Positions 3,904 to 36,940 of a stretch of DNA of 39,669 bases are shown here, in pieces. The notes under the pieces are model-generated. The model saw only the letters and a list, made by a program, of their open reading frames with translations. It ran no database searches and was not told where the DNA came from. Within the stretch, counting starts at the first letter, position 1. Every line of letters starts with the position of its first letter. The position numbers and the translations under genes are program-made. Origin of the DNA: Bacilli bacterium (lineage in GTDB: Bacteria > Bacillota_I > Bacilli_A > MAG-NZ); assembly GCA_018401215.1 (NCBI GenBank), contig JAGYLA010000004.1, positions 1 through 39,669 of the forward strand, read 5' to 3'.

Positions 3904-3914
3904 ACATGCCTTTT
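3889..3914. terminator. Bidirectional terminator between helicase and giant surface gene
   Basis: A 9-bp perfect stem AGGCATGTC/GACATGCCT (3891-3899 and 3903-3911) with a GTA loop, flanked by A on the left and T on the right. The helicase stop (3901-3903) lies inside it and the stop of the convergent surface gene (3913-3915) touches it, so it can serve both strands. Confidence 0.85.
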
Positions 3915-6900
3915 AGTTTGATTTGGGTTTGATCAAATACGGAGCAATGAGGGTCGTGACAATCAAGACGCCAAGAACTGCTCGTAAGATCATGTTTGGT
4001 TGTGGCGCTAAGAGAATTCCGATGCCGGTTGCAGCACTCGCGATAACAAAGCTTTCAACCACGGGTTCTTGACCTTCGTATCGATATTCGATGTTGAAGT
4101 CCAAGTTGTCACCTTCGCGGATGTAGACACCCATCGATTCACCAGGCTCAATCAAACTTTCTCGCCACGACATCGCGCCCACATTCAAGAAGAGGGATTT
4201 GTTGTGGTCGTTTCCACGATAACGGATAACCACCGCTTCAAGGGTTTCATCAATCCGTGGTTCGACGACAAACAAGTCCACAAACCCATCTTCGTATTCA
4301 ACCTTACTCATGAACGTATGTTGTTGGGTGTTAGTAAGCGACGTTTCACTCTCAGGATCAAGTTGGACAAAGTCTGAGGTTGGAATCTTCTCTGGGTTGG
4401 CGATATAGGTTGCAGGTTTCAAGAAATTCACTTGATGGGTGTTGTTGGCATCTTTGACCATTGTATAAATGCTTTGTCCTGGTCGTGTTGTCAAGAACGG
4501 TTCTCCGGTGTACGATTGCCAGTTTGGTTGATCAAATTCTGGCGGTGTCCCATCGGTAATGACATAAAACACTTCGACAGTTTCAGGGTCCAATCCGGTG
4601 ACATCCAATTCAATCGCTTCTCGTTCATTTGGTAGCGGTATGGATACCGACCCATCTTCACGAACTTGCAATTCCAATCCACCAGGAATGGCGATCGTTT
4701 CAATCACTTCTTCACCAAACAAACTGGTTGACGTAATGTTGTCTGTGCGTGTTGTGAAGTCATTGGTGATTGGTGGTGTCGTAAATGGATTAGTGACGAT
4801 GCGTTCAAAGACGCTACGAGCCGCATCAAGCAAACTCGGTGCTTTTTCAAACAACGGCACCAAGACCACGAAGTCTGGATTGTTGATGACCGTTTCTGGA
4901 GTAATCATCTCTCCAGTAATGGCATTCATCCAGCCTTTGAAATCATAACCACCTAAGTCGGCAGCAGGCAATTGACCTACCGGTTGACCAGGGATAATCG
5001 ATACATCCAGTTCAATGCCATTGACCGTAACACGGGTGACAACAGGGTCTGGATTTGGTGGTAATACCACCTCAGGAATTATAACGCGCGCAGGTCGTCG
5101 ATTCGGAATGCTGACGTTGATCACCGGTGGAGCAGGTGGTTGATTTGGACTCGCTGGTTCGGTTGGTTCCGGTTCCGACGGTTCTTCCACCTCTTCGTCA
5201 GTAGGTTCTTCCTCGTCTTCTTCCTCATCGTCTTCTTCCTCATCCTCTTCTTCAATCTCTTCGTCGAGTTCCTCCTCGTCGAGTTCTTCCTCGAGTTCTT
5301 CTTCGAGCTCTTCCTCTTCGAGTTCCTCTTCCTCAATCGCCTCATAAATCGCCGTAATGGTTACATTACTTGCTGGCATCGGGTTTGGTACATCTTGACT
5401 CCAGCCAACGGGAATAAATCCTTCTCTGGCTGGTGGCAAGCCCAAATTAATCGACGAGGTATTTGCGCCAAACGGAATCGACGAACGAGAGAGTTGTCGT
5501 CCAGCCGCCATAATGATCAGATTGTAACTACGGGCCGTCCAACTCGCGGTAAATGTTCGATCACCAATCGACCCTGCGGCAATGAATCCATTTGGACTCC
5601 AGCCGCCAAAGATCAATCCTGGTTGACTTGGACGAACCAAAGTAATGCTGTCTGATTCAATGGTGTACGTTGCTGGTAAGCCATCTCGGACTCCAACTTC
5701 GTTATAGGTGATGGTGTAAATAATAGCGGTCCATTTCGCATAAATGGTTTGAACTTCTGAAGTCCCGACGACAAGACCGGATGTCGCAGTGGTGAAGGAC
5801 GCGTCAGTAAACCATCCATCAAAGTCATACCCGACTCTTGAAGGGTCGACATACGTGACATCTTCTTCAATATTATAGGTCGCTGGATTCGCTCCATTGA
5901 CGCCACCATTCAAGTTGTAAATAATGTCATATTCTACCGGAATCCATTTGGCATACAGTGTAAAGTCACTATCGGCCATCACGCCATCCCAGTCGTATTC
6001 TTGCGTCAATCCGGAATCGGTAAACCAGGCAATAAAATCATACGCATACCGCGTCGGATCTTCTGGTTTAAACTCCAAGACGGGTTGGGAGATGATTCGA
6101 GTTTGACGGGCAACCGCACTTCCCAAGTTCGATTCAAAGATAATGTCAGCCACATAATAGACCGTGATGACGTGCTGTCTAGAAATCGATGCGCCTTGCG
6201 TATCGGTTGCAGTGAGGGTAATCGGATATGGTTCGATGCTGAGTCCTGACACCAACGTAGGAGCGCCAGAAATTGTTAATGTTGAAGGATCAAACGTCAA
6301 TCCTGGTGGCAGTCCCGTGACGGTATAGCTTAATGTTTCATTGATGTCGGTATCAAGGAATAAATTCGCATCGTAAGTCAAATTGTAGTCAATGAATGCA
6401 ATCGCATCGGTAGGTTCAATCGATACAGCATCGTTGACAATTGGTTGATAGTTTTCAATGTCCAAACGAATCGTTTGGGTTGCTGCATTGCCTGCCGCAT
6501 CGGTCGCGGTGTATTGAACAAAAATCGGAATGCGGTTATTGAGAGCAGTAATTGCTGCCGCATCATTAGCAAAGGTTGCGGTATCATCCAAATAAAACAG
6601 TTCAACATCGGCAACGGCTAGTTGCGAGGCATTGGGGTCTCTAGGTTGCGCAAATACCAATCGATATTGGTTGTAGGCGCGAGTTGCATTGATCGCAATT
6701 CCTAACCCTGCGGCTTGACGTTGCGCTGGAAGGTTGGTTACTCCAGAACGTACAAGTTCATACGTATCAGAACTGATTTGGCCATACAAGTAATACACCA
6801 ACGGGTCTAAGCCAGAGCTCATCGACGAGGTTGTTAGTTGCATCGCGCCAATGATTCGTTCCGTTTCAAAATAGAAGGTGGTTCCGATAATGCCTGACAA

Positions 6901-9900
6901 TGCGGTAAATGTTGCGGTGGTTTCATCGTCTTGGTCAAACAAATTCACCATCGAAGGATTCGACGATGGTGGTAACTCCTCACAGTAGGCTGTTGCTACG
7001 TCACAGTTGACGACCGCCAAAGACGTTTCGATGTTTGAAGCAAGAATCAATCGAGCTGCGGAAGGCGTCAAGCGATCAGCAAAGCCAGGATACGTTTCAT
7101 GTGCAATGACCAACCCTGAAAGGAAATCATCGGTGACCGTTGGTACAGGAATGCTTAACCCAAGGGTCTGATTCGTTGTATATACACTGGATGCAACGTT
7201 GGAAATCACCGGAGCAGCCGAATCAACGCGGACTTGAATGCTCGCAATGAATGAATAACTCACGCCAGTAATCGAAGCCGTGATTGGTACTGAATACGTT
7301 GCTTGCGCACATTCACCAATCGACAAAGTCAACGATGATGCACTCATACAAGCAGGGAGGTCACCAAATTGAATGGTGACATTTGCAGCTGTTTCAAAGC
7401 CTGGAATCGAAGCAAACCATGCTTTATCCACAACATACTCATTATTATCGACATGACGCCAGAATGTTGCACTTGGAACGGGGTTAATAATCAATGTGTA
7501 ATCAGACGCAACCGAGTATTCACCGTCAGTGGCCTCGATTCTCATACTGTACACGGCACTATATTCTTGCGTTAACGCGGCAATGCCACTTAATACCAAT
7601 GAACCACTGGATTGCAATTGCAAGAACGACGGAATGTCTGTACCACTAAAGGTCAAGGACGGACCATCGGCGTCAAGGAAGAATTCATTGAAATCAAAGT
7701 TCACCACCACATCGTCACCGGGAGCCAGCATCACTACGCTTGTGCCTGAGTGTACCGGTGGAGTATTGATTGGTTTGATTGCAAGATTGATGATTCCTGT
7801 TTGCAGGACACTGTCCGCTTCCGAACGCACTGTAAAGGAGTAAATGGTTGATGGATTCGGCGTTTGAACTTCAACCGCAACTTGCGCTAACAAACGGTCA
7901 GCGATCGATTGATTGAGTTGTTGCGCTGATTCTAGTCCAATGTTGTCGACTCTGAATGTCGCACCCAAATATCCGCCACCCGATTGGTCAAAGCTTCCGT
8001 TCACAAACAAGAAGCGCAATTGACTGGATGGTGCTGGAAGTTCTGAGCTATTGAAGACATGCTCATGGCGCCCCGATCGATTGGCGACTGAAGCATTGGT
8101 TAACACTCGTTTGTAGAAAATTGGGATAAGTCGGCCACCTTGTGAGTCATCAATGACAAAGGCATACACATCGGCAGCATCGCCGCCTGGCACTGCTTGC
8201 CAATCAAACGAGATGGTATCACCAGACCCAGCACTAAAGGTTTGAACACTACTAATGGTTGGCCCAAATAACGTACCATAATTTCCAACACTACTTCGTA
8301 GTCTTGTCCAACCCGTACTGGTTAATTCGATCCGAGGATCCCCAGAGATCGTCGTAATTCTGGCATTGAAAGTGAGTGAGTTGTTGATCACCAAATCACT
8401 CCAATTGCCTCGTTGGTGTGAACCTACAGAGTTGCAGGCACTATTGACACAGTTGCGATTTGGATATCTGGAAAAATCAATCGATCCAAATTGAGCGAAG
8501 TCAAAATACCCCTCACGAGTGGGTTGAACACTAAATTCATTGATAATCCACCCATCAAGCTGTTCACTAAAATCTCCGTTATACAACAACGCCGAGACAT
8601 TGATGACCAAGTCGTTGCCGTTACGGCCATTGTTGACACTATCAATGGCACCAATTTTCACTTTCGAAGACCCATTACCAATGTAGACGATTCCTGATTC
8701 TTCAGATATCACACCATCGGCCGTTGCAACGCCAGACTGCTGAATGAACAATCGGTCTTCTTGTTGCAATTGAGACGATGAAATACGAATTTGACCCGCG
8801 GTCGAGACATTGCTATTGAAGGCAAAGGTGTCTTCGATGTTGACTAGACCACTGGAGTTTTCATACACACCGTAGACAAATTCACCATACACACTCACTG
8901 CCCCCGTGGAGACAGTAGCATGAGTAATGGCTGCGGTATCTCGTCCAGTGGTTGGAAACCATACCAAGACGATTTGAGAATCCACTTCTGGAATTCCTTG
9001 GTTCAGGCGGTAATTGCCAAATCCTTCTGGAACCCACTCAGTAAAGATGATGCTGTTATCGGTGAAATGGTAATACACCGGAACAATGCTAAATGAATGT
9101 ATATCATCACTTGGTGTCCCGCCAAAATAAACAGGACGAACCAAGACATCGATGAAGCCTTGATCCAAACTCTCCCAGTATGCGTTCGTAATAGGTTGCG
9201 AATACGTCGTCCAATTCACTCCTGAATCGGTCGAAAACTCCAAACGCAACAATTGATTTGGATTATTTACAGAATCTACAGATGAAAAGCTTGTTCGTAA
9301 TTCACGATTGACTAAGCGTTCAAAGGTATGAGTTGGCTGAGCCAAAATCTCTGCCTCATAGGTGTAGACCGTTTCGTCTTGTCCATAAGACACTTGCGTT
9401 ATCGGGGTTGTTATCGACGCTTCTTCGAACCATCCGACAAAGAACTTGGTTGGACCATAACTTGGATCCACCAAGGAGTAATTAGTATCACTAGGTAGCA
9501 ACAATACATCAAGTGTCGACAAGCCCGAAACCACATAAGTTAACGTATCAAAGGACACATTCACTTGCGCAGAAACCGAATCGTCTTGATACAGTGCACG
9601 CACTGACATGGCTTGCGTCGTTGCTGGAATGACAAAACCTTCGGTGAATGTCGTCCAAACACCGGAATCAAATTGATATTCAAAACGATTGAAGCCAGCC
9701 ATTCCACTGTTTGTTGCATCAATCATAGCGACAACGGATTGATCTGCACGGCGGTCATAAGCAATGACTGGTGTGATAAGTAGTGGTGTACGAACGACTG
9801 CTGTAGTAGCATCACTACTGACGGAGCCATTCAATGCGCGAATCCGAACGGAGTACGCTTGATTGTTGGTTAATCCACCAATCGTCAACGGTGACGTCAC

Positions 9901-12900
9901 AGCCCCAGCTGCGTCCCATTCTCCACCATCGAGTGAATATTCGATACTCGTAATCGTTCCTGTAGGAAGAGTGAAGTCAATCACGATTTCTTCGTCTTTG
10001 GCCGTCACTGAATTCACCACAGGTACATTCGGTTTGGTTTGGAAACTAAACTCGGACCCATAAACGGTATTCTTATTACCACTCACAGTATTTTCAGCAA
10101 ATGCCCTAGCGTAATAGACTGTATTTGGTGAGAGGCCTGTTACGTTAATCGAGTAATCACCGATTGAAGTAGGAGTTCTTGTGACTTTAATGTCATCAAC
10201 ATCTGGATTGGGTGAGGTTGAGACGACGACACCATACTCATCAATCAACGTGTTTCCATCCGACACTAGTGTCGCATTCACGGTTGCTGAGGTTGTTGTT
10301 ACGTTAGACACTGATGAGGTCGCCACAGTAGGAGCCACTGCCGCAAGAACCGAAACCAAAGAGCCCTCCATCGAGAGGGTTTCAGCTTTGATCCATGCAC
10401 TACTTCGTTCAACACTAGCCAAACGAACGTCAGAAATTAAACCATTAAAATGATGGTTAGATTCGTGAGTTCCGATATGTAAATTACGGGGACTATCACT
10501 CATTCCATCCGCTGCAGCAGAGGAAATCAATGCTCCATTGATAAAGGCATTCTTCGCCGCGCCATTGCGATTACTTAGCGCAATCGTTTGGAAGCTACCA
10601 AAGGAGACGTTACCAAACGTTAGGTTGTTAAAGTCGCCATCAATGCCATTGGAGTAAATCCATTGTCCATTTTGCATGAACAACCCATAGCCAGTACTAC
10701 CAGTCCCATGCGTTGAGAGAGGATCTTGACGGCTGCTGATATTGAGCGAGGCAAGTTCTTCTGCGTATTGATACCAATTTGTATCACCATCGGCTTGTGT
10801 AGGGCGTCGCCAGAACAATCGTAAGCCCTCGCCGCCTCCTACTTCTTGTTGACGAACTTGAAAGGTCACAGGTACGCCTGCAGTCAGGGTAATCGTCCCG
10901 GTGTGAGATCCAAGCCTAGCGGTGCCGTGACCTCCATAATGGTGTGCCACGACCGTACCATTCATGATCAAATCTACGGCATCATCACCCTCAATCGTGA
11001 AGGTATAAACACCGGTCTCTTTGGGAATGAAGAACCCTTGTAAACGGACGGCAAAGTTGTCACTTCTTGAGGTGACACTGGGCAAGAAATAATTGAGGTC
11101 TCCGACATTCGTCCAGTTGAGCAAGTTTCGCGTTCCAACAGAGGAAGAACTGTTTGCCTGAGAGAACGTCGTAAAACCAACCGGAGCAACTCCTTGCGCA
11201 TGCAATGGTGCATCATCAATCGCATCAAACTGAGCTGCATTGTTTGGATATCCATTCGTGTTGCCATTCCAATTGTGATTGCTAGGGGGATAATAAATTT
11301 CAAAATTCAGTGACCCAATTTGTCCTAGCGGCATCAAGCGAATGAGTTGGGTGTGGTTTGCGGTTATCGGAACCGTACCCGCAGTAGTAATCACATTGGA
11401 CGCAGAGCGATCAAACGAACGAGCAAGGGAATTTCCCACGCGCTGCGAGGTAGTTCCCGTCGCCGTTAATGTTTGATTGCCCGTTGAATCTAGAAGGGTT
11501 GCTCCCATGTGCGAGACAAATTCATAATTTGAACGCCAAACATTCGTTGCTTGGAATCCACTAGAGAAATTTTGATCACCATCATGTCGCATGGTGAAGT
11601 TGTTATTGACAGTACTAGAGACGTTAGGCAAGCGAACATGGTAAATAGCAAGTTGCTGCGCACCACTAGCATACTCCACTTCAAAGTCCAATAACGTTCC
11701 ATCATTCAAAACAAAATGAACTGAGTTTTTGTAGGCATCAAAGCTTGTGAAATCATAGTTTGAAGCATTTAACACAACGGTTGCTGGAAAGTCTGTTAAG
11801 TCTGCATCAATCAATCCAGAATCCACTCGAAGCGGAACATTCGACCCACTTACGTTGGCCAAATAGGCGGCCGTTGATACTCCTGAAACAGTACTCGCTA
11901 AAACACCACTTGAGAAATCATCGTCAATGCCATAGCGGACCAAGAACGAAGGAGCAGATTCTTCTACGTTGACAAACGGAATCAATACTTCATACACAGC
12001 AACTTCATCTGACGGATTGTAAGAAATTCGGTTGAACGATAGTAATGAATTCAGTCCTGAGGTAAAAAAGATGTCTGAACCGGTTGCACTAAACGTTCCT
12101 GGGAAATTATATTCATCCAGCGTAACACGAACCACTGCTGCACCACTGGTGGCAATGCGTGTCGTATCAATATAAACTAGTCCACTATTGAAACTCGTGT
12201 AATTACGAACCCATTTTGCATAAAGAGTGATGTTGCTTGCTGGCATTACATCAGAGTCAAAGGTGACTGGTTGCGTAAACTCAGCATCATAAAACCAACC
12301 AATAAAGTCATAATTGGCTTGCGAAGGTTGGGTTGGAGCGGTAAGCGTCGTTCCACTGCTGACACTAATCGTATCAAGTGCAATGAAATCACCCGCATAG
12401 GAAATCGTTGGTAAAACAATATTGATATTTAGTGATGCAATGGATTGGTTATCAGCGTCGTCTACTGTAATCAGATACACAGGGTAAGAGCCGAGTGTAT
12501 CATAGTCCACTACCCCACTAAGTGTGGTAACTGGATTAATAAATCCAGCGACTACAAATCCGCTTGTAACATCGGTTTGTGAACTAGTTCCAACGATCAA
12601 GTTCACAGGATCAATCATGTCATTAACAAGTGGTATAACGCCTGAATGGTTTATTAACGTATTGGTTAATGATAAATATTCAGCCTTAATCCAAGCATCA
12701 CTTCGCCCAATATCTGAGATACGAACCTCATCCATTGTTCCTCTAAATGGATTTTCCCCATTGGTTGCATACGCACCAATTACAATCGAAGCTCGATTAG
12801 CAATTCTGCTATTCGAATTGTCTGTAACTGAGAAAGTAGAATTATTGAGCCAAACGTGTGAATCATCATTACTAAAACGGTTAGCGAAGAACGTAAAATT

Positions 12901-14394
12901 AGACACTTGTACTCGTGTTGAAATCAATTGAGTTTCGGGACTAAATCCACCATTATAGGTTGCAATTAATACATTATCTCGAATAAAAAATACAGCATCT
13001 GGAGCAGAAGTCATTAAGTTATACACGCCACCTGTTTGCGATGGAGTGGCAAGAACGATTTTCGTGAATTCATCGGTGTTCAATGAACTAGGTAGTTCAA
13101 TGTAACCGCCATTGAAATTTGCTACATCTCCTAAGAGTCCAGAACCAAACGTGATGCTGTTGATTTGTAGTGCATCTGTAGTTGACGCACTGTTTGGAAT
13201 GCCAGGTCCCATGTGCGAGACAAAGATGTAGTGTTCATCCCATACGTCAGATGGGTTTCGACCATAGGTGTAATCGACTGTGGTTGAATGACGAACCCAA
13301 ATGGTTGTATCAACACCACTAGAAACAAATGGAACTCGTACGTGGAAAACACCACTATTTGGAGAAACCGAATCCACTTCAAAATCAAGCAGTTGATGCG
13401 CCGTATCGGTAAAGTAAATACCAGACATAGTAATGCCAGTAAAGTCAAAATTTGAGTCGTCCAAGACAACAGTCAATGGAAAATCAACCAAATCATCGTC
13501 AACATCAGACGCTGGAATGGTCATGGTTTGATAGATGAAGTCTCGTTCCAATTGAGGCGATGGAAATCCGACACCTTGACCGGCGTAGAAGTTTTGTGAC
13601 ACTTCATTCGCACTTAGTGCACGGTCATACACTCGAAATTGGTTAATTGATCCTGCCAAAAATGATCGATCTGTCATGTATGAGACATCAATCCCAGCAA
13701 ATAACGTCAATCGCTCATCACTACGTGCTGCTTTTACTCTAATTCCTGATGCCTCTAGCACACCGTTTACATACAAATTGAGTGTGTTGTTTGATCCCTC
13801 ATGGGTGTAAACAATATGATTCCAATTGGCACGATCAAAGTCATTGGCCGCTGCAATACCTGCCGGATTCCATATTCGAGCTCCAACAGAGTCATTATTC
13901 TGTACTTCTAGTTTTGAATAGCGCCAACTACCAATCGATGACGCACCATTGGAATCAACATCTGTATAACTTCTTTGAGCTACTAGTACTCCGGTATCAC
14001 TTGGTACATTGACCCACATTTCAATGGTGGTATTGATGGTGTCTTGAATCGTCCCACTGGAGACCAAGTAACCATCAATCCCATTGAAGGAATAAAATCC
14101 AGGGGATTGGTATACTGCGCCACCCTTGACAATAAAGTCATAATCATTGACCAAGTCTTCCCACAAGGCACTTGGATTGCTCCCTGGTGAACTAGCATCC
14201 AGATGAATCATCAATCCACTAGTGACAATTTGAGGCACAGTCCATTTCGCGTAGAGTGTGGAACCACCTACTGGAATAATAAATGGTTCTGCTGCTGGGG
14301 TGGTTAACCCTGAATCTGAACCATCAGCAAAATCAAAACCTGTTCTGTGGCGACTGGAGTTATGCAGACCCAGCTTCTCCAGTGATAGGCAACA
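3913..14394 (-). CDS. Giant modular surface protein, main part (LamG, DUF2341, InlB repeats, PA14, membrane anchor)
   Basis: This open frame continues the gene that starts at 16471; the GTG at 14238 is not a real start, because the frame upstream of it encodes the end of an InlB-type repeat (GGSTLYAKW). Approximate modules by position on the minus strand: LamG 14220-13580; DUF2341 13545-13215; LamG to about 12660; InlB-type repeat 12400-12210; DUF2341-like 12180-11500; PA14 11240-10800 (ends LRLFWRRP); LamG 10690-10360; fibronectin III 10330-9790; InlB-like 9540-9340; carbohydrate-binding-like 8600-7900; cadherin-like 7780-7480 and 6450-6170; discoidin-like 6960-6590; four InlB-type repeats 6110-5345; a Glu/Asp spacer 5340-5150, then Pro-rich; one more InlB-like repeat near 4900; a hydrophobic anchor with a short basic tail (YLIKPKSN) at the end. 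Only six Cys are seen, in three pairs. Likely a long adhesin or glycan-binding fibre. No sortase motif. Confidence 0.88.
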   Translation of the reverse strand, partial: CCLSLEKLGLHNSSRHRTGFDFADGSDSGLTTPAAEPFIIPVGGSTLYAKWTVPQIVTSGLMIHLDASSPGSNPSALWEDLVNDYDFIVKGGAVYQSPGFYSFNGIDGYLVSSGTIQDTINTTIEMWVNVPSDTGVLVAQRSYTDVDSNGASSIGSWRYSKLEVQNNDSVGARIWNPAGIAAANDFDRANWNHIVYTHEGSNNTLNLYVNGVLEASGIRVKAARSDERLTLFAGIDVSYMTDRSFLAGSINQFRVYDRALSANEVSQNFYAGQGVGFPSPQLERDFIYQTMTIPASDVDDDLVDFPLTVVLDDSNFDFTGITMSGIYFTDTAHQLLDFEVDSVSPNSGVFHVRVPFVSSGVDTTIWVRHSTTVDYTYGRNPSDVWDEHYIFVSHMGPGIPNSASTTDALQINSITFGSGLLGDVANFNGGYIELPSSLNTDEFTKIVLATPSQTGGVYNLMTSAPDAVFFIRDNVLIATYNGGFSPETQLISTRVQVSNFTFFANRFSNDDSHVWLNNSTFSVTDNSNSRIANRASIVIGAYATNGENPFRGTMDEVRISDIGRSDAWIKAEYLSLTNTLINHSGVIPLVNDMIDPVNLIVGTSSQTDVTSGFVVAGFINPVTTLSGVVDYDTLGSYPVYLITVDDADNQSIASLNINIVLPTISYAGDFIALDTISVSSGTTLTAPTQPSQANYDFIGWFYDAEFTQPVTFDSDVMPASNITLYAKWVRNYTSFNSGLVYIDTTRIATSGAAVVRVTLDEYNFPGTFSATGSDIFFTSGLNSLLSFNRISYNPSDEVAVYEVLIPFVNVEESAPSFLVRYGIDDDFSSGVLASTVSGVSTAAYLANVSGSNVPLRVDSGLIDADLTDFPATVVLNASNYDFTSFDAYKNSVHFVLNDGTLLDFEVEYASGAQQLAIYHVRLPNVSSTVNNNFTMRHDGDQNFSSGFQATNVWRSNYEFVSHMGATLLDSTGNQTLTATGTTSQRVGNSLARSFDRSASNVITTAGTVPITANHTQLIRLMPLGQIGSLNFEIYYPPSNHNWNGNTNGYPNNAAQFDAIDDAPLHAQGVAPVGFTTFSQANSSSSVGTRNLLNWTNVGDLNYFLPSVTSRSDNFAVRLQGFFIPKETGVYTFTIEGDDAVDLIMNGTVVAHHYGGHGTARLGSHTGTITLTAGVPVTFQVRQQEVGGGEGLRLFWRRPTQADGDTNWYQYAEELASLNISSRQDPLSTHGTGSTGYGLFMQNGQWIYSNGIDGDFNNLTFGNVSFGSFQTIALSNRNGAAKNAFINGALISSAAADGMSDSPRNLHIGTHESNHHFNGLISDVRLASVERSSAWIKAETLSMEGSLVSVLAAVAPTVATSSVSNVTTTSATVNATLVSDGNTLIDEYGVVVSTSPNPDVDDIKVTRTPTSIGDYSINVTGLSPNTVYYARAFAENTVSGNKNTVYGSEFSFQTKPNVPVVNSVTAKDEEIVIDFTLPTGTITSIEYSLDGGEWDAAGAVTSPLTIGGLTNNQAYSVRIRALNGSVSSDATTAVVRTPLLITPVIAYDRRADQSVVAMIDATNSGMAGFNRFEYQFDSGVWTTFTEGFVIPATTQAMSVRALYQDDSVSAQVNVSFDTLTYVVSGLSTLDVLLLPSDTNYSLVDPSYGPTKFFVGWFEEASITTPITQVSYGQDETVYTYEAEILAQPTHTFERLVNRELRTSFSSVDSVNNPNQLLRLEFSTDSGVNWTTYSQPITNAYWESLDQGFIDVLVRPVYFGGTPSDDIHSFSIVPVYYHFTDNSIIFTEWVPEGFGNYRLNQGIPEVDSQIVLVWFPTTGRDTAAITHATVSTGAVSVYGEFVYGVYENSSGLVNIEDTFAFNSNVSTAGQIRISSSQLQQEDRLFIQQSGVATADGVISEESGIVYIGNGSSKVKIGAIDSVNNGRNGNDLVINVSALLYNGDFSEQLDGWIINEFSVQPTREGYFDFAQFGSIDFSRYPNRNCVNSACNSVGSHQRGNWSDLVINNSLTFNARITTISGDPRIELTSTGWTRLRSSVGNYGTLFGPTISSVQTFSAGSGDTISFDWQAVPGGDAADVYAFVIDDSQGGRLIPIFYKRVLTNASVANRSGRHEHVFNSSELPAPSSQLRFLFVNGSFDQSGGGYLGATFRVDNIGLESAQQLNQSIADRLLAQVAVEVQTPNPSTIYSFTVRSEADSVLQTGIINLAIKPINTPPVHSGTSVVMLAPGDDVVVNFDFNEFFLDADGPSLTFSGTDIPSFLQLQSSGSLVLSGIAALTQEYSAVYSMRIEATDGEYSVASDYTLIINPVPSATFWRHVDNNEYVVDKAWFASIPGFETAANVTIQFGDLPACMSASSLTLSIGECAQATYSVPITASITGVSYSFIASIQVRVDSAAPVISNVASSVYTTNQTLGLSIPVPTVTDDFLSGLVIAHETYPGFADRLTPSAARLILASNIETSLAVVNCDVATAYCEELPPSSNPSMVNLFDQDDETTATFTALSGIIGTTFYFETERIIGAMQLTTSSMSSGLDPLVYYLYGQISSDTYELVRSGVTNLPAQRQAAGLGIAINATRAYNQYRLVFAQPRDPNASQLAVADVELFYLDDTATFANDAAAITALNNRIPIFVQYTATDAAGNAATQTIRLDIENYQPIVNDAVSIEPTDAIAFIDYNLTYDANLFLDTDINETLSYTVTGLPPGLTFDPSTLTISGAPTLVSGLSIEPYPITLTATDTQGASISRQHVITVYYVADIIFESNLGSAVARQTRIISQPVLEFKPEDPTRYAYDFIAWFTDSGLTQEYDWDGVMADSDFTLYAKWIPVEYDIIYNLNGGVNGANPATYNIEEDVTYVDPSRVGYDFDGWFTDASFTTATSGLVVGTSEVQTIYAKWTAIIYTITYNEVGVRDGLPATYTIESDSITLVRPSQPGLIFGGWSPNGFIAAGSIGDRTFTASWTARSYNLIIMAAGRQLSRSSIPFGANTSSINLGLPPAREGFIPVGWSQDVPNPMPASNVTITAIYEAIEEEELEEEELEEELEEELDEEELDEEIEEEDEEEDDEEEDEEEPTDEEVEEPSEPEPTEPASPNQPPAPPVINVSIPNRRPARVIIPEVVLPPNPDPVVTRVTVNGIELDVSIIPGQPVGQLPAADLGGYDFKGWMNAITGEMITPETVINNPDFVVLVPLFEKAPSLLDAARSVFERIVTNPFTTPPITNDFTTRTDNITSTSLFGEEVIETIAIPGGLELQVREDGSVSIPLPNEREAIELDVTGLDPETVEVFYVITDGTPPEFDQPNWQSYTGEPFLTTRPGQSIYTMVKDANNTHQVNFLKPATYIANPEKIPTSDFVQLDPESETSLTNTQQHTFMSKVEYEDGFVDLFVVEPRIDETLEAVVIRYRGNDHNKSLFLNVGAMSWRESLIEPGESMGVYIREGDNLDFNIEYRYEGQEPVVESFVIASAATGIGILLAPQPNMILRAVLGVLIVTTLIAPYLIKPKSN

Positions 14395-15424
14395 CTTGTT
14401 CCACCATTTGTCTCAAAGCAGTATAAACAGGTTGTAGCTCAGCTCACCCTGATAACGCATTGTATTCGGCTTTAATCCAACGTCCGGATATTAGAAATTC
14501 GAACTTCGTCGATTTGCCCGTTAAGTGACTCGTTTTTAGCTCTACTATTTAATCCAAGAATTAAGAAACCGCTGTTTGTCAAATTAAATCCTAAATTCGT
14601 TTCAGTATTTAGGACACTTTCATTACGTATGTTCTAGATACGCCACTATCTCGAACAACGCTCAAATAATTGAGATTCCCTGAATTCGTTAATTGTCCTG
14701 AATTCGAGCTTTCAGGAGTCGTTGAATAGGACTGAAATTCAAATGTATTATTTTGATAAATACCTGACATTAAACTGAGGTAAACCTAAATCATCACTAT
14801 CAATTTCCATCTACCATTAATGTCGTAGTTATCCAAAATTTCCACCAGCTGCCCATGGAGTAAACCACGTTTTCGTCACAAGGTCTCTTGGATACGAGAA
14901 TCCCTTGATGAGTAATATTTTTGCTTAGCTAATATGCTAATAGCAAAATACTGATTTGTACCAAAATCTAAGGAATCAGCATCTGGAATTGCAATGTAAT
15001 TACCATTTACTTCGAAAAGACTGCTTTCTCCAACGGAAGATTGAATAATACTGACTCCACTATTTGATGAGCTATTGTTACCTGTACCTGAAGAATCATC
15101 CAGATTCTTCCCATGTGCATAACAAGAACATAATTCTCATCCCAAACATTGGTAGGATTATATCCATCACTGAAATCATAGAAATAATTATCAACCGATA
15201 TATCAATTAAAATATCTTGGTTTTCTAATCCACTGGTAATCACACCAGAATACAGACGTGATATACCTAATCCACTCAGCATGATTAAAGTAATCGACTT
15301 CAAAGGGAAGTAGATTATCATTCGTGTCGGTAAAGAAGACATCCGCTCCACTAGATTGAACCAAATTAAAGTTAAAGTTCCCACTGTTTAAGACAATGGT
15401 TGGGAAAGTTGGTTAAATCTTCTT
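14395..15424 (-). pseudogene. Frameshifted middle of the giant surface gene (DUF2341-LamG-InlB)
   Basis: No single frame stays open, but successive pieces in different frames are all parts of the same protein. From 15424 downwards: a DUF2341 start (IRIDKTKVEEDLTNFP, then SSGADVFFTDTNDNLLPFEV near 15330), the DUF2341 end (NPTNVWDENYVLVMHMG near 15120), a LamG-like stretch (15060-14450), and an InlB-type repeat (FETNGGTSVA, then TGEAGSA, then TRTGFDFADGSDSG) running into the main frame. At least five single-base shifts are needed. The motif order matches other modules of the gene, so I read this as the intact protein disturbed by indels, either sequencing error or genuine decay. Confidence 0.75.
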
Positions 15425-16471
15425 CTACTTTTGTTTTGTCGATGCGAATAACGCCAGATGCATAGTTCTCATAAGAATGCGAGACCACTGGGCATATAAC
15501 ACCGTGTCTTGAAAACTCATTGTGAAGGAATCTTGATTGGAATACGCATTGCCAGAACCGTCTGATTGATCATTCCAACCAGTAAATTCATAACCATCTC
15601 TAGTAAAGCTGTTATCAGGCAACGTGACAGTAGAAAACTCTTCTGCCGTCACAACACTCATTGAACCTTCTCCTTGATTGGAGTTAAAACTTAAATTAAC
15701 GTCAACCAACGGAACAAATGCTTGCTTGGTTGCGTGGAAATTGTTAGAAACCTCTTGGCTATTTAAGGTCTCGTTATAAATGCGAACTTGAGCGATGTTT
15801 CCATCCCAAAAAGAATTTGCAGTAGTTTCATTGTTACCATGAGCACCAACACGCAAGACTTGGGAAGAAAAGGATCTACTTGTAGCAATTTCTTGATCAA
15901 CCTGTATTCCGTCAACATACAATATCATGGACTCGGATGGATGATTAAACGTCAAAACAACATGCTTCCATTCATTTATAGGGAATGACCCACTACTAAC
16001 AAAAGGCCAGTGACCGCCAATTCCACCCCGAAGTTCGCTTCCCGATAAATAGAACGGGCTATCTTGTGTACTAATTATATTTCGAGGACCAGAAACTACA
16101 TCGGTTTTGACCCATGCTTCTTTTGTGTAGCTTGTATTTGCTGCTAGAGGGGTTCCCAAACTGACATAGGTAGAAGTTCCATTAAACACAATGCTTCCAC
16201 TGTTGGTCGCATCAAATAAACCACTTAATATCGCGAAGCCTGACCCATCGACGAGGTTTACCCACTGATCTCCACTACCTGCGTAGCTAGTTGAATCTGA
16301 TGCGTCCAGATGGACAATCAACCCAGATGTTGTTACGGTTGGCACACTAGACGATGAGACGATAGTCTCTTGGGCTGTTGTAACTAAAGCAAAAAACAAC
16401 ACGGTATTGATCAGTGTTGTAGCAAGCAATCCTAGTTTGGTTTTGATTGTGAGTTCCAATCGACGAATCAT
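15425..16471 (-). CDS. N-terminal part of the giant surface protein (signal peptide, LamG, InlB repeat)
   Basis: The ATG at 16471 starts a signal-anchor-like N-terminus (MIRRLELTIKTKLGLLATTL, then a hydrophobic run ending near TTAQET), typical of an exported protein. A GTG eight codons upstream (16495) is an alternative start. Next is a LamG/concanavalin-like domain: GLIVHLDASDSTSYAGSGDQ at the start, FNGTSTYVSLG, the strand EAWVKTD, WKHVVLTFNH, LYVDGIQVDQ, and closing with QVRIYNETLNSQEVSNNF. An InlB/Flg_new repeat follows (YEFTGWNDQSDGSG, ending VLYAQWSR). After about 15430 the frame is lost, but the next expected module continues in another frame. This is the N-terminus of a gene ending at 3913, about 4,190 residues in total. 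Confidence 0.85.
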   Translation of the reverse strand: MIRRLELTIKTKLGLLATTLINTVLFFALVTTAQETIVSSSSVPTVTTSGLIVHLDASDSTSYAGSGDQWVNLVDGSGFAILSGLFDATNSGSIVFNGTSTYVSLGTPLAANTSYTKEAWVKTDVVSGPRNIISTQDSPFYLSGSELRGGIGGHWPFVSSGSFPINEWKHVVLTFNHPSESMILYVDGIQVDQEIATSRSFSSQVLRVGAHGNNETTANSFWDGNIAQVRIYNETLNSQEVSNNFHATKQAFVPLVDVNLSFNSNQGEGSMSVVTAEEFSTVTLPDNSFTRDGYEFTGWNDQSDGSGNAYSNQDSFTMSFQDTVLYAQWSRILMRTMHLALFASTKQK

Positions 16472-16499
16472 CGGGTTATGGTTACCTGTTTGCACATAG

Positions 16500-19797: not shown

Positions 19798-21392
19798 ATG
19801 AACCTAAAAGTAAGCAATCCCTTTTTATCTCAGCGCCATCCCGTCGTTGCCAAACACGGTGTGGTCGCAACTACGCAACCTTTGGCTGCAACCATTGGGC
19901 TTGATATTTTAAAACAAGGAGGCAATGCGATTGACGCTGCGATTGCAACCGCTGCCGCGATGACGGTGTGTGAACCCACCGCCAACGGCATTGGTGGCGA
20001 TGCGTTTGTGATTGTTTATTCCAAGGGCGAGTTATATGGCTTAAACGCAAGTGGTAAATCCCCCGCATCGATTAGCATTGACGCCATCAAACAAAAAGGC
20101 AACGCGACGATGCCGCAATTTGGTGTCGATTCGATCACCGTCCCCGGTGTACCCAAAGCATGGGCTGATTTGCAAGCTCGCTTTGGTACCAAACCCCTTG
20201 CTGAGTTATTGGAACCAGCGGCAAACCTCGCGCAAACTGGCTACGCCGTCTCGCCGCAATTGTCGGACATGTGGACTCGCTCCAACAAACGATATCAAAC
20301 AATCTTTACCGACAAGATGTTCGAGCCTTGGTTTGACTTGTTTACCACCAATGGTGTTGCGCCTGAAGTGGGGTCTGTCTGGTCGTCCCTAGAGATGGCA
20401 CAAACACTGCGCACCATTGGGGCCACGAATGCGAATGATTTTTATACGGGATCACTTGCCACTCAAATCGCGGACTTTGTTCAGGCACACGGTGGGTATC
20501 TATCAGCTGCTGACTTAGCAAATCACCAAAATGAATGGGTCACCCCAATTAGCGTCAATTACAAGGGCGTTGACGTGTGGGAACTGCCGCCCAATGGTCA
20601 AGGCATCGTCGCCTTGCAAGCATTATCGATGCTGGCAAACGAATCCCATCCTTACGGAGAGGTCGAATCGATTCACCGACAAATCGAAGCAATCAAACTC
20701 TCGTTTGCCGATGGCATGACATGGGTCACCGATCCCGCCATGATGACGCTAAGCCCGAGTGATTTCTTAGCGGCAAGCTATATGAAACAACGTGCCGCGT
20801 TGATCACCGACAAGGCTCAAGTCTTTCCAACCGGACTTCCTTCTTCTGCCGGAACAATTTACTTGTGCACGGCAGATAACGACGGCAACATGGTGAGCTA
20901 CATTCAAAGTAATTTTTATGGGTTTGGCTCAGGCATTGTCATTCCCGGCACGGGGATTAGTATGCAAAACCGTGGCTTTAGTTTTTCGCTTGATGAAACT
21001 CACGCCAATGCCTTGGCGCCAAACAAACGAACGTATCATACAATCATCCCAGGCTTCTTGACCAAAGACGGTCAACCTCTTGGTCCCTTTGGGATCATGG
21101 GGGGATACACGCAACCCCAAGCGCACTTGCAAGTGGTGATGCATTTGGGTGATCGTTACAATGAATCCGCAAGCCGCACTCGATGCGCCTCGCTGGCAAT
21201 GGATGCAGGACTTGACGATTCATGTCGAACCACAGTTTCCACTTGTGCGTTGATGCCGATGCCAAAGGCCGCCGATGGTTGTCTTGGAAGAATCATTGAC
21301 CTTTGGTCGTGGTCAAGTCATTTTACGGCTTAGTGATGCGACATATGTTGCTGGCAGTGAAAGTCGCCGAAGGAATTGCGGCATTTTATTAA
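19798..21392 (+). CDS. Gamma-glutamyltransferase, YwrD-like, frameshifted near the 3' end
   Basis: An Ntn-hydrolase that matures by self-cleavage and transfers or hydrolyses gamma-glutamyl groups (glutathione and related peptides). Motifs: QGGNAIDAAIATAAAM (about 40-55), ANGIGGDAF, SITVPGVPKAW, ELPPNGQG, and the cleavage site with the nucleophile Thr in SSAGTIYLCTADNDGN, then GFGSGIVIPGTGISMQNRG. There is no signal peptide, as in cytosolic YwrD-type members. The start ATG has AAAGGAG upstream; longer alternatives lie before the ribosome site. The first frame stays open to 21335, but after about 21155 the conserved tail continues in other frames (NPQAALDAPRWQWMQD, then GRGQVILRLSDATY and EGIAAFY) to a TAA at 21390-21392. 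About three single-base shifts are needed. Confidence 0.88.
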
Positions 21393-21556
21393 CAACGAAT
21401 TTACGAAAAAAAATATTAATAGTGAATCGTCAAGCAGCTTTGCGAAATATACGAACTCCAAAATTTTGGTAGCACTTTCATTGGTTTTTGTGCCAAAACT
21501 TCTATCTGAATGTTTGTTAGATAAGTTTAATAGAGATAGATAACATTCAGGTCTTC
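21393..21556. promoter_or_regulatory. Region with palindromes upstream of the ABC importer operon
   Basis: 164 nt without a gene. It contains a perfect 12-bp palindrome CCAAAATTTTGG (21458-21469), a further CCAAAA half-site near 21493, and a 9-bp inverted repeat CTGAATGTT/AACATTCAG (21506-21514 and 21542-21550) ending 7 nt before the ATPase ATG. Such symmetric sites suit a LacI-type or similar repressor of a sugar-type importer. No clear consensus -35/-10 pair stands out. Confidence 0.4.
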
Positions 21557-22643
21557 ATGACATCAAATTGTCCAATCTAACGAAAACCTTTCAACAAAAA
21601 AAACAATCAGACGTCGTTGCGGTAAACGCAATGAACCTTACTATCCCCTCAGGCACTTTAGTTGGATTACTTGGACCCTCTGGGTGCGGAAAATCGACGA
21701 CCCTATACATGATTTCTGGTCTTTTGGCACCCACCGAAGGATCGATTTTTTTTGGGGATGAAGATGTAACGGCAGTTCCACTTGTAGCACGGGATTGGCT
21801 TGGTGTTTCAAAATTATGCCTTATATCCACACATGACGGTTCGTCGAAATATCTCGTTTCCGTTAGAAAACTCCAAAGAAATTAAAGCGATGTATCCTAA
21901 CCGCAAAGAACGCAAAGAATACATCGAACAAACCGTGCTAGAAACCGCACGGATTGTTAAAACCGAGGACTTGCTGAATCGTAAACCTGGTCAATTGTCA
22001 GGCGGTCAGCAACAACGTGTCGCAATTGCCCGTGCCTTGGCGAAAAAGAAGCCCTAGTATTATTACTGGATGAACCACTGTCAAATTTAGATGCGCGTTT
22101 GCGCTTAGAAACGCGTGAAGAAATCAAGCGCATTCAACGCGAAACCAATGTCACAACCATCTTTGTGACGCACGATGAAGAAGAGGCGGTAAAGGCATCT
22201 CACAGTTCCATCGTCGTGATGAAAGATGGCGTCATTCAACAAAACGATGCACCCCCAATCCGTAGCCTATGGCGTCAGGCAATGAGTTCGTTGCACGCTT
22301 CTTAGGTAACCCCCAATCAACGTCTTTCTAACCAGGCACCAATGGGAACGATGTTGTGATGATTGGTGACGCTACAGTCAGGACCTGTAGCAAATAGTTC
22401 GATCGATGTCGGAATTCGTCCTGAATCGTTCAAACAAGGTGAAACAGGACTACCCGTGGTGGTGACCATGGTGGAAACGATTGGTCGCGATAAGCTCGTC
22501 CGATTTGTCACCACCGATCGACAAACAGGGCCAGCGTTACTCAGAAGCGGATGTTCAAAGTAACGACTAATGAGACGATTCACTTGCAAGTACGAGACAA
22601 AGGCGTCTTCTTCTTTGATGAACAAGGAGGTCGATTAACCTAA
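21557..22643 (+). pseudogene. ABC importer ATPase, MalK/UgpC type, multiply frameshifted
   Basis: All parts of a MalK/UgpC/MsmK-type ATPase of about 360 residues are present in order but in changing frames: an N-terminus (SNLTKTFQQKK), Walker A (GPSGCGKST near 21680), Q-loop (VFQNYALYPHMTV near 21805), signature (LSGGQQQRVAIARAL near 22000), Walker B (LLLDEPLSNLDARLR near 22065), switch His (FVTHDEEEA near 22165) and the C-terminal regulatory TOBE-like domain (IDVGIRPESF near 22400, ending DEQGGRLT). Shifts lie near 21575, 21797, 22050, 22260-22300, 22345-22390 and 22550-22575. The end TAA overlaps the permease ATG (TAATG). The protein would energise the importer of the next three genes. Confidence 0.85.
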
Positions 22644-28016: not shown

Positions 28017-29367
28017 TTACAAATAAAACAATGTCGCCAACAAGAAGTAAATGCTGATGCCTGTGACGTCAATGATCGTCATAATGATTGGGTCAGCACC
28101 CGCGGCTTGATCAGGCCCAAGCTTCATCAAGCCGTACGGGACAACATAGCCGAGTGTCGAACCAATGATGATCGCACTCAGAGCGCACTCGCAACGACAA
28201 ACGCCAAATTCAAATCCCCTTGCCAGACAAAGATAAACAACCCGCAGGTATCGTTAAACAAGCCAATCGTCACACCAACCCCTAGTTCACGAATAAATGA
28301 CTCATGAACTGTTTGACGTTGATTTGACCAAGGACCAACGCTCGCGTAAAGATCGTCGAGCTTTGCGTTCCGACATTACCACCCATCGCCATGATCATTG
28401 GGATAAAGAACGCGAGCTGGACCATCGCCAAAGCGGATTCAAAGCCTTCAAAATGATTCCAGCGGACAAACCTCCAAGCAGCGTAATGACCAAGAACGGA
28501 ATACGAATTTTCCAAACATCCACAAGTGATCCATGAGGTCAACAAGCGTGAGCGTCGGTTTCCCCGACGACTCAGTTCAATCAACCCCGCTTTGTCTGGA
28601 AGCTTGATCGATGCGTTCTTCTTCAAGACATCCATCGCATCATCGACCGTGACGACACCAATCAATCGGTGTTCGTTATCGACGACAGGAATCGCGAGCA
28701 AATCATACTCCTGAAGCAGTGCAGCAACGTCTTCATCGTCCATCGTCGCTAAGACACTAATTGGGTCTTTGGTCATGATTTGATCGAGTGGTTTCTCCGT
28801 GTCTTCAAAGATCAAATCACGAAGTAAGATTTCCCCGATCAATTGTCGCTTGGATGGTTACGTACAAGTGATAAATCGCTTCGACGTCTTCGTTGGATTA
28901 CGGATCTTTTCCAGTGCCTGACCGACTGTCATTTCCGGAGTGAACCGGTAATACTTGGGAGTCATATGACCGGCCGTTCCATCCTCATAGCCCATCAACA
29001 ACATGACCATGTCATGTTCCTCACGCAGAATACGACTCAATAACAAGCGGGCCACTTTGGCCGGCAATTCATCCATCAACGCGGCTTTGTCATCCGGTTA
29101 AAAACTTAAAGTATTCAGCCGCCTTGTCGATACGAAAACTTTGATCAACCGTTGTTGCACTTCGACTTCGAGTTCTTCAAATACCTCCAGTGCGGTGTCT
29201 TTGGCTAGTAACCGGTACCACCGCTACCGGGGTTCTTCTTTGAGCGTCTCCATCAAGTTCGCAATGACGGCGGGTTCTAATTCCCTCAAATACGCCTTGA
29301 GTGACTTTAAGTCATCGAGCTTGATCCATTCTAAAATTTGTTCAATATTTTCGTTAAATTGTTCCAT
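28017..29367 (-). pseudogene. mgtE: MgtE-type magnesium transporter, multiply frameshifted
   Basis: The pieces add up to a full MgtE of about 450 residues. Minus strand from 29367: N-domain (MEQFNENIEQILEWIKLDDL, then LEPAVIANLMETLKEE), the GYEDGTAGHMTP segment near 28990 leading into the CBS domains (LDQIMTKDPISVLATMDDED near 28780, then VDNEHRLIGVVTVDDAMDVL), and the membrane domain (FFIPMIMAMGGNVGTQSST near 28390, then the end LLATLFYL at 28017). MgtE is a Mg2+ channel gated by cytosolic Mg2+. The frame breaks near 29225, 29100, 28855, 28540, 28280, 28185 and elsewhere, always between recognisable parts. The start ATG 29367 has a GAGG site 5 nt upstream. No M-box riboswitch fits in the short upstream region. 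Confidence 0.85.
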
Positions 29368-32220: not shown

Positions 32221-33019
32221 TTAAATGAATAGAATCAAGCTTAACGCCATGATTCCCATCCCCATCATCATCCCAATGATCGAGATGTGATGTTTTCCAT
32301 ATTTTTCGGCACTCGGTAACAGTTCATCCAAACTGATGTATACCATGATCCCTCCGACCGCGGAGAACAAAAAGCCAAAGAACAATTCGCCACTGAACGC
32401 TTGGAGTAAGAAAATCCCAACAATCGCGCCGAGAGGTTCGGCAAGTCCTGAACCCAGTGCATACCACAACGCTTTCGCCTTGTTGCCAGTCGCATGATAG
32501 ATTGGCATCGCGACAGCAATCCCTTCGGGAATGTTATGGATCGCAATCGCAACCCCAACACTAATACCTAACGCCGTACTTTCGGTCGCCGCAATGAAGG
32601 TCGCTAGACCTTCAGGGAAGTTATGAATCGCAATGGCTAAAGCTGTAAACAACCCCGTACGAAGTAACCGCGAACGTTCCATCAATACTTCATTGTCGAC
32701 GTCCCCGTTATCCGGTAACGTATGCGGATTCATCATGTCGGGAATCGCATAATCAATCAATCCAATCAACAACATCCCCGCAAAGAACGCAACGGTTGTC
32801 GTTAGGATGTACGCGTTTTCGAATCTGATACTTCGGTCAAACTCTCCAGTGCTTTGGGAAAAATTTCTATAAAGGAAACATAGATCATTACCCCTGCAGA
32901 TAAAAGCTAAATGCCAAGAACCCCTTCTTGTTCGCAAGCGGTGTAAACGCGAGAAGGCCACCAATTCCGGTGCTTAACCCCGCAAACAATGTAATTAAAA
33001 ACGCAACTAATATATTCAT
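32221..33019 (-). CDS. ZIP-family divalent metal transporter (ZupT-like), frameshifted near the N-terminus
   Basis: About 266 residues with eight membrane helices; imports Zn2+, Fe2+ or Mn2+. The metal-binding helices carry HNFPEGLATF and HNIPEGIAVA, with GSGLAEPLGA after them, as in ZupT/GufA-type ZIPs. The frame open from 32964 lacks a proper first helix. Upstream in another frame, ATG 33019 (with GAGG 9 nt before) begins MNILVAFLITLFAGLSTGIGGLL..., then VMIYVSFIEIFPKALE near 32880, which is the missing N-terminus. Two or three single-base shifts between 32960 and 32820 join them. It is followed by the DtxR-type regulator. Confidence 0.88.
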
Positions 33020-34667: not shown

Positions 34668-35630
34668 ATGAGCCGTTCACAACAAGTAACCATCAAAATT
34701 CTGTTTGCCTTTACGGTGCCATTCTCCTTGCTTGGCTCTTAGAGTTACCTGGAACTGTCACTACAGGAATCCTCGCGATCATTAGCATTCAACCGACCAA
34801 AACCGATGCAGTGTTGATCATGATTCGTCAGCGATTTTCTGCGGTCATCGGCTTTTGCCTTTGCCTTGCTGGTCTTTGAAGTGTTTGGATATACCCTTCT
34901 AATGTATACCCTCGTTAGCATTGTCTTTACGATCTTCTCTTACGTAGCGACACTTGGGGTCGGTGTGGTTCCAACATTAGTGCTCCTTGGTACGTTAATG
35001 GCTCATGGGTCCTATGACCCATTGGTCCTATTACAAACCTCACTGATGTTGATCTGTTTCAATCATCGTCAGTGCGTTAGTCACCTTCTTGTATCCATCC
35101 AGTGCAACAAAAGCGGCAGAATTTGTCTTAGCAAAAACCGATGACGTGCTCAAACAAATGCTCACACTCTTATCAAATCCTTAAAGGAACCAAACAATCA
35201 AGTCCGTATCAAGATTCGTTCGCTCAACTAGATAGCACCGGCAAAGACTTGATTGTCGAAGCCGAAAGCACCAACAAAGACTTCTTGTTTTAGCCAAGAC
35301 AATTCACTCTATGCCTATTTAAAATGCGCCAATCCCAAATGAACCGAGTGCGTCGTTGTTTCGCTTGCTACAATCAATCGATCAACCGACGCCATTTTAT
35401 GAACCGCTTCGCCATCCTTTGTTGAGGAATTGATTCCTGCGATTGGTGCAGTGGATCAGCCACTCCCCTTACGATCGCGTTACTACACCTCACAAACGAC
35501 TATAGAAGCCCTCCCCAAAACCAGGGAGGTTTGAGACTTCGTGCCATCTTGTTTCAAATGCTCTTTGAACTCGATTACTTCCTCAGCGTCCAAAATTCAA
35601 TACCACCAACAATCAACGAATTAATTGTTG
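34668..35630 (+). pseudogene. Aromatic-acid-exporter-like (FUSC/DUF939) membrane protein, frameshifted
   Basis: Pieces in several frames make up a protein of about 320 residues resembling ArAE_1/DUF939 inner-membrane proteins, which are related to aromatic acid efflux. Recognised: GAILLAWLLELPGTVTTGIL, then AIISIQPTKTDAVLIMIRQR near 34780, FALLVFEVFGYTLLMYTLVS near 34870, VGVVPTLVLLGTLMAHGS near 34960, a soluble linker (AAEFVLAKTDDVLKQML near 35120), and LRAILFQMLFELDYFLSV near 35540. ATG 34668 has GGAG before it. Frames break near 34715, 34855, 35065, 35170, 35290, 35330 and later. The 3' end overlaps the convergent amidase end; the exact stop is uncertain. Confidence 0.65.
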
Positions 35631-36940
35631 ATACTGATGCTTTAAGGCCAGCAGGAATCATCGCGCCAAGTTTACCGCCGATAAAGGTCACCCCGCGTGG
35701 ATGCTTGTCCCACGATGCTTCAGGGACGTTTACACTGGGATTGCCATGAATTGCCCCAAAATCAGTCAACCAACCGTCACAATCGCCCAAGTAGCCCTCA
35801 TCGAGCATCGTTTCCGCCACGTGAGAAGCCATCTCAATTGGGCTTTTTTAAGGCCAAATATTCTGGATCATCCAGAGCTTTCGCGTGGGTTAGGACTGCT
35901 CCAGTAAAGTAATTCCATATTTCATTGCTCGTTCAGGATTCACTTTATATTCTTTGATCAAATCTTCCATCGACTGTAGAGGAAAGTCAGGACTAAGGTT
36001 TGTAAGAGAATGCGTTCATCGCTGGTGCGAATTCCGCAAGTAGTATTTGATTGTTCGGAATGTAACTGGGTGATGGTTGTTCTTCGACCTCTCAGCCAAT
36101 CGCTTTCAAACGAGGAATTGCGAGTGCTTTCATCGGTGTCGACCCATTCACTGGGTAAATAATCACCGAGTAATCCCGGCATGGTTAACCAAAAGGACCT
36201 TGCCTTTTGGTGGTTGCGACAAGCGGGTGTCGCCACCGGGTTTGCCACTGATGACATCCATCATCAAAGCGACGTCTTTGACGGTTTTCGCCATCGGTCC
36301 GGCCGTATCTTGACTTGGTGAAATCGGAATGATTCCGTGTTGCGGGACCACGCCTTGTGTCGGTTTTAAGGTGACAACCCGATTGTACTAACGCCGGGGC
36401 CATTAACGACCCATTGGTTTCACTACCAATCGAGACTGGCACAATGTCCAAGGCCACCGCAACCGCACTGCCGGTACTAGACCCCAGCGGGTCGACCGAT
36501 TCATCATACGGATGTTTGACTTGACCGTACATCGAACCATAGCCATTGGGCATTCCTTCGGTCGTTAAAAAGTTCGCTAATTCTGACAAGTTCGCTTTGG
36601 CGACAATGATCGCGCCTGCGGCAATCATCCGCTCAACAATCAAGGCATTATAGGGCGGCATCAAGTCACGCAGCGCGTACGAATTCGCCGTCGTTGGTGT
36701 ACCGTCTTGGTATAAAATATTGTCTTTGATCACCACGGGAATGCCGTGGAGTGGACCGCGCAAGCGGCCAATCGAGCGTTCTTCGTCGAGTTGCTTTGCT
36801 AGTTCTAGTGCTTTCGGACTTGTCACGCCAATCGCGTTAAACTCTTTGGTTTCGTCAATCCGCTTGAACGCGGCTTTGACCAAATCGACACTGGTGGTTT
36901 TGCGTGCGGCTAAGGCCGCACTGAGTTCTTGAATGTTCAT
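35613..36940 (-). CDS. Amidase-signature-family amidase, frameshifted in its 3' half
   Basis: An amidase-signature hydrolase of about 450-480 residues, releasing ammonia from carboxamides (peptide amides, glutamine-like substrates). The first 250 residues are open: the Lys of the catalytic triad in VIKDNI, the Ser cluster [12 protein letters not shown], and SIGSETNGS (the cis-Ser strand). After about 36370 the frame changes repeatedly: [20 protein letters not shown] near 36330, a middle piece near 36050, then [12 protein letters not shown] near 35765 and the end [13 protein letters not shown] at 35613. The start ATG 36940 overlaps the S9 peptidase stop (ATGA), with GAGGT upstream, so they form an operon. 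Two Gly/Ser-rich positions differ from the usual GGSSGGS. Confidence 0.82.

What the first reader, a model, noticed from the sequence alone, without database searches (positions are those of the whole stretch)
3913..16471. One giant surface protein gene of about 4,190 residues, hidden by a frameshifted segment
The open frame ending at 3913 appears to start with GTG at 14238, but that codon lies inside an InlB-type repeat that begins upstream. The N-terminus with its export signal is at 16471, and the damaged stretch 14395-15424 contains DUF2341, LamG and InlB pieces in the expected order. Joined, the gene spans about 12.6 kb, a third of the window.
Basis: partly seen in the sequence, partly recalled or inferred. 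Interest (0 to 1): 0.72.

Follow-up and report, generated by a model that had tools for sequence, protein, structure and literature searches.

The report
Giant surface protein, assembly-damaged gene
A roughly 4,200-residue, membrane-anchored, probably sticky surface protein is encoded by one 12.6 kb gene that only looks broken because this draft genome carries bursts of single-base sequencing errors, so the protein is large but of an ordinary kind.

Summary
On the minus strand, an export-signal N-terminus (16471), a scrambled ~1.1 kb stretch (about 15.47-14.34 kb) and a 3,441-codon frame (14238-3913) form one coding unit of about 4,186 codons. The scrambled stretch aligns to the gene's own intact downstream block only if the frame may change 7-11 times. 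It then shows 38% identity and, at the laxer setting, no in-frame stop. GTG 14238 is not a start: it lies in an InlB repeat, with no ribosome site or signal.

The damage is an assembly artefact, not pseudogenization or phase variation. The same bursts occur across this fragmentary MAG: 172 frame changes in 147 kb aligned, against 8 in 138 kb of a same-family genome. They hit dnaE, leuS, metK and, in this window, mgtE, an ABC ATPase and an amidase. Identity inside bursts (43%) equals that outside (42%).

The protein is a LamG/InlB-repeat/PA14/fn3/He_PIG surface protein with an N-terminal signal and a C-terminal transmembrane anchor. There is no sortase motif and no sortase gene was found. Open frames of 2,000-7,000 aa occur in the same class. 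The 'DUF2341' label is not supported by Pfam. Most likely role: a fibrillar adhesin-like carbohydrate-binding protein (inferred). New member of a known kind; low interest.

The parts
3913..16471 (-). whole giant gene, about 4,186 codons
15478..16471 (-). intact N-terminal part: hydrophobic export signal (residues ~12-33), LamG_3 (16183-15746), first InlB/Flg_new repeat
   Evidence: Pfam LamG_3 1.4e-21, Flg_new 1.1e-12; hydropathy
14340..15470 (-). damaged stretch: burst of frame changes over a DUF2341-like block, a LamG-like block and the start of an InlB repeat
   Evidence: frame-aware alignment, 7-11 changes over 15443-14450 plus probably at least one in the InlB repeat
3913..14238 (-). frame that looks like a separate gene but is the rest of the giant gene
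13597..14076 (-). LamG_3 domain
   Evidence: 1.4e-18
13180..13548 (-). DUF2341-like block, copy 1 of the intact copies
   Evidence: 40% identical to 11823-11479; alignment A1; not recognised by PF10102
12688..13107 (-). LamG_3 domain
   Evidence: 3.6e-7
12214..12372 (-). InlB/Flg_new repeat
   Evidence: 5.4e-17
11509..12162 (-). two further DUF2341-like blocks (12162-11854 and 11850-11509)
   Evidence: alignment A1, 32% and 37% identity to the first copy
10792..11064 (-). PA14 domain (GLEYA overlaps)
   Evidence: Pfam 4.1e-11, 6.4e-12 on the piece
10390..10707 (-). LamG_3-like domain, below cut-off
   Evidence: 4e-6, 26.2 bits against a cut-off of 27.6
9811..10317 (-). fibronectin type III-like domains
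6160..6387 (-). He_PIG (Ig-like) domain
   Evidence: 4.4e-12
5480..6150 (-). tandem InlB/Flg_new repeats (approximate limits)
5030..5340 (-). Glu/Asp-rich then Pro-rich linker
   Evidence: read directly from the translation
3916..4593 (-). C-terminal module with one transmembrane segment (about 3999-3925) and a short Lys-containing tail; shared with a 568-aa protein of a same-family genome
   Evidence: 23% identity over 242 aa, E 7e-9; hydropathy

Best explanation
One intact gene in the organism encodes a giant (~4,200 aa) exported surface protein. It is exported through its N-terminal signal and held in the membrane by a C-terminal transmembrane segment. It projects a rod of Ig-like, fn3 and InlB repeats that carries several lectin-like LamG domains and a PA14 domain, and so probably binds carbohydrate or host/community surfaces as a fibrillar adhesin. 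The apparent break at 15.47-14.34 kb is a burst of single-base insertion and deletion errors in the assembly. The likely cause is a stretch taken from unpolished long reads inside an otherwise accurate contig. Shown: continuity of the coding unit, the burst pattern genome-wide, and the domain content. Inferred: the sequencing method, the membrane topology and the adhesive function.
For: Frame-aware alignment of the damaged stretch to the gene's own intact block: 7-11 frame changes, 38% identity, no in-frame stop at the laxer setting; controls far lower. Other stretches of the gene aligned with the same tool: no frame change at 10300-12150, one at 15425-16471. Genome census: 155 genes, 172 changes in 147 kb, 119 genes with none and up to 20 in one gene; the same-family control genome has 8 in 138 kb. 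Broken genes include dnaE (14), leuS (8), metK (9), priA (20) and fmt (6), with gene names read from the relatives' proteins. The single metK hit holds only the C-terminal domain in frame, and the only dnaE-type hits all carry stops. In the window mgtE has 6-8 changes, the ABC ATPase 3 and the amidase 2. Identity inside bursts is 43% and outside 42%; median spacing between changes is 80 nt against 857 expected if uniform; homopolymers of 4 or more lie near 25% of changes against 13% background. Domains. C-terminal anchor module shared with a same-family membrane protein. No sortase motif and no sortase found. Indels are described as the most abundant nanopore error, and frame correction raises MAG completeness (PMC8103633). 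Hybrid assemblies are sometimes used unpolished (PMC10928208).
Against: No reads are available, so the error source is not seen directly. No close relative carries the same gene intact: the DUF2341-like block has no full-length match in 395 genomes of the class. Frame-change counts at ~38% identity are uncertain by several. The damaged stretch is lower in G+C (0.37) than the rest of the gene (0.44), which bursts elsewhere are not. The adhesive role is by domain analogy only, and the single-sequence structure model was unusable (pLDDT 35).
Confidence: 0.93

Rival explanations
1. A real pseudogene: the giant gene was broken by mutation in this strain and only fragments are made.
For: Many frame changes and stops in 1.1 kb of the sequence as given; giant surface genes evolve fast.
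Against: No excess of amino-acid change inside bursts (43% against 42% identity) and almost no in-frame nonsense codons. Essential genes carry the same bursts. About 10.4 kb downstream and 1 kb upstream form open frames.
Confidence: 0.04
2. Two separate genes: a short secreted LamG-InlB protein (16471-15425) and a 3,441-aa protein starting at GTG 14238, with decayed DNA between.
For: This is what a gene caller would report.
Against: GTG 14238 is inside an InlB repeat, with no Shine-Dalgarno (3/6) and no signal peptide; the stretch between encodes blocks homologous to the next ones in the same gene.
Confidence: 0.02
3. Programmed frameshifting or phase variation of a surface antigen.
For: Surface proteins of such bacteria are often phase variable (general knowledge).
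Against: Seven or more changes in 1 kb, not at one repeat tract; the same bursts occur in dnaE, leuS, metK and mgtE.
Confidence: 0.01

Closest known systems
Fibrillar adhesins / FA-like proteins (PMC9210967)
   Same: Large, exported, repeat stalk (Flg_new is listed there among stalk domains), Ig-like domains, putative binding domains, surface anchor
   Different: No sortase motif; a membrane segment anchors the C-terminus; binding domains (LamG, PA14) are interspersed along the rod rather than only at the tip
InlB/Listeria-Bacteroides repeat (Flg_new, PF09479) surface proteins of the same class
   Same: Tandem Flg_new repeats in long open frames, up to 3,069 aa among the hits listed
   Different: This one adds DUF2341-like blocks, LamG and PA14 and lacks detectable relatives of the DUF2341-LamG block at full length
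Giant1-5 extracellular proteins of Apilactobacillus kunkeei (PMC12863079)
   Same: 3,000-8,000 aa, signal peptide, long repeat region, in a small genome
   Different: Those have beta-solenoid heads and helical repeats, and lie in a cluster of five; no sequence relation was tested

Membership tests
Fibrillar adhesin-like proteins | Large length | tested here: met
   about 4,186 codons
Fibrillar adhesin-like proteins | Repeated stalk domains | tested here: met
   several Flg_new repeats, He_PIG, fn3
Fibrillar adhesin-like proteins | Adhesive domain | tested here: inconclusive
   LamG_3 and PA14 are present, but binding is not testable here
Fibrillar adhesin-like proteins | Cell-surface anchor | tested here: inconclusive
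   C-terminal hydrophobic segment shared with a same-family protein; none of nine sortase motifs; no sortase in the own genome or two same-family genomes
DUF2341 (PF10102) | Match to the Pfam model | tested here: not met
   no match at E<=1 in any piece; none in the own genome; no BLAST similarity to a true PF10102 member
Laminin_G_3 (PF13385) | Match over curated cut-off | tested here: met
   three stretches over the cut-off
InlB B-repeat / Flg_new (PF09479) | Match over curated cut-off | tested here: met
   147 bits summed over the main frame; 48 bits in the N-terminal part
PA14 (PF07691) | Match over curated cut-off | tested here: met
   43.3 bits, cut-off 24

The most novel reading that the evidence does not exclude
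A single, lineage-restricted giant membrane-anchored adhesin in a reduced genome that may lack a cell wall (no PBP transpeptidase, FtsW/RodA or sortase found), using an anchor module of its own family instead of a sortase.
Probability: 0.25. Interest if true: 0.35.

Novelty: new member of a known kind. Interest (0 to 1): 0.17.

Why it matters
It corrects a likely mis-annotation (two genes, or a pseudogene) and shows that this draft genome has local bursts of indel errors breaking essential genes. Gene counts, pseudogene calls and completeness for this organism should therefore be treated with care. The biology itself, a giant lectin-like surface protein, is of a known kind.

Tried and rejected
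A codon-usage Viterbi scan for frame changes was too insensitive: it called the burst non-coding and counted gene overlaps as shifts. A single-sequence structure prediction of the DUF2341-like plus LamG block gave pLDDT 35 and was not used. No phage or viral relatives of that block were found. No solved-structure relatives by sequence were found. Low G+C as a general cause of bursts was rejected: inside 0.431, flank 0.432 over 17 bursts. Pseudogenization, two genes and programmed frameshifting were considered and rejected (see rivals).

Full report
Observation. The minus strand carries an open frame 3913-14238 (GTG, 3,441 aa) and, upstream, a frame 15425-16495 whose ATG at 16471 starts a protein with a hydrophobic export signal. 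Between them, from about 15.47 to 14.34 kb, all three minus frames hold many stops (30, 18 and 21) with no open run over 126 codons, yet coherent protein pieces hop from frame to frame.

Is it one gene? I wrote a protein-to-DNA aligner that allows frame changes at a cost and aligned the gene's own intact block (13.56-12.13 kb) to the damaged stretch. It aligns over 15443-14450 with a score of 194-210, 7-11 frame changes depending on the penalty, 105-107 of 279 residues identical, and one or no in-frame stop. At a still stricter penalty only the first half (15443-14927) aligns, with 3 changes and a score of 181. Twenty shuffled templates reach at most 66, the other strand 36, and the alignment without frame changes 91. 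Part of the remaining InlB repeat aligns over 14417-14239, with one or more further changes when the penalty is low. GTG 14238 lies straight after the end of that InlB repeat, with no ribosome site or signal peptide. So there is one coding unit.

Error or biology? The window is contig 34 of a 796 kb, 61-contig genome, 78.6% complete. Within the window the same damage hits mgtE (6-8 frame changes in 1.1 kb, no in-frame stop; intact copies in relatives), an ABC-transporter ATPase, the end of a gamma-glutamyltransferase, a zinc-transporter-like gene and an amidase. A census of sampled contigs against proteins of a same-family, one-contig genome (G002) and other fetched loci gave 172 frame changes in 147 kb: 119 of 155 genes had none, and 29 had two to twenty. 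The reverse census on G002 gave 8 changes in 138 kb. Genes hit include dnaE, leuS, metK, priA, fmt and mnmA (names read from the relatives' proteins). MetK is found once, with only its C-terminal domain in one frame. The only DNA polymerase III alpha matches in the assembly carry five or more stops each. Identity to relatives is the same inside and outside bursts (43% and 42%), changes cluster (median spacing 80 nt against 857 expected), and homopolymers are enriched near them (25% against 13%). Decaying genes would lose identity and gain nonsense codons, and a living cell cannot lose these genes. The damage is therefore sequence error. Indels are reported as the most abundant nanopore error type (PMC8103633), and hybrid assemblies are sometimes left unpolished (PMC10928208). 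Unpolished long-read patches inside an accurate contig would give this pattern; this last step is inference.

What the protein is. The order of parts is: export signal; LamG; InlB repeat; [damaged: DUF2341-like block, LamG-like block, start of InlB repeat]; LamG; DUF2341-like block; LamG; InlB repeat; two DUF2341-like blocks; PA14; LamG-like; fn3; a long stretch without family matches; He_PIG; InlB repeats; an acid- and proline-rich linker; a C-terminal module with one membrane segment. The C-terminal module matches a 568-aa membrane-anchored protein in G002 (23% over 242 aa, E 7e-9). There is no sortase motif, and no sortase was found in this genome or in two same-family genomes. The 'DUF2341' name is a resemblance by eye only: Pfam's model does not match.

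How it works, most likely. Exported through the N-terminal signal and held by the C-terminal membrane segment, the Ig-like, fn3 and InlB repeats form a rod that presents lectin-like LamG and PA14 domains; an adhesin or glycan-binding role follows by analogy with fibrillar adhesins (PMC9210967). This is inferred, not shown.

Novelty. Flg_new surface proteins are common in this class (42 of 60 relatives), with open frames such as 2,591, 2,572 and 3,069 aa, and one repeat protein frame of 7,266 aa in another. The giant protein is a new member of a known kind, and the break is an artefact.

Noticed in passing
window 28020-29208 (-): mgtE-type magnesium transporter gene broken by 6-8 frame changes without in-frame stops; intact in relatives.
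   Followed up: yes
window 21140-22330 (+), 32820-32900 (-), 34900-36400 (-): Further burst-like frame changes: end of a gamma-glutamyltransferase, an ABC ATPase of a UgpABE-like operon, a zinc-transporter-like gene, and an amidase whose second half is unreadable.
   Followed up: partly
own genome G000: No match to sortase, PBP transpeptidase or FtsW/RodA families, although two same-family genomes have PBPs and FtsW/RodA: possible secondary loss of the cell wall, but the assembly is 79% complete and error-ridden.
   Followed up: partly
L042, L043, L045, L046, L048, L049, L061, L063, L064 (short contigs of G000): Contigs of 1-3 kb have no stretch that looks coding under the genome's own codon model: error-rich or wrongly binned.
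   Followed up: no
window 14340-15470: The damaged stretch has lower G+C (0.37) than the rest of the gene (0.44), unlike other bursts in the genome.
   Followed up: partly
G052 contig 1 near 1630369 (L170): A 7,266-aa open frame of near-identical tandem Ig-like repeats in a genome of the same class.
   Followed up: no
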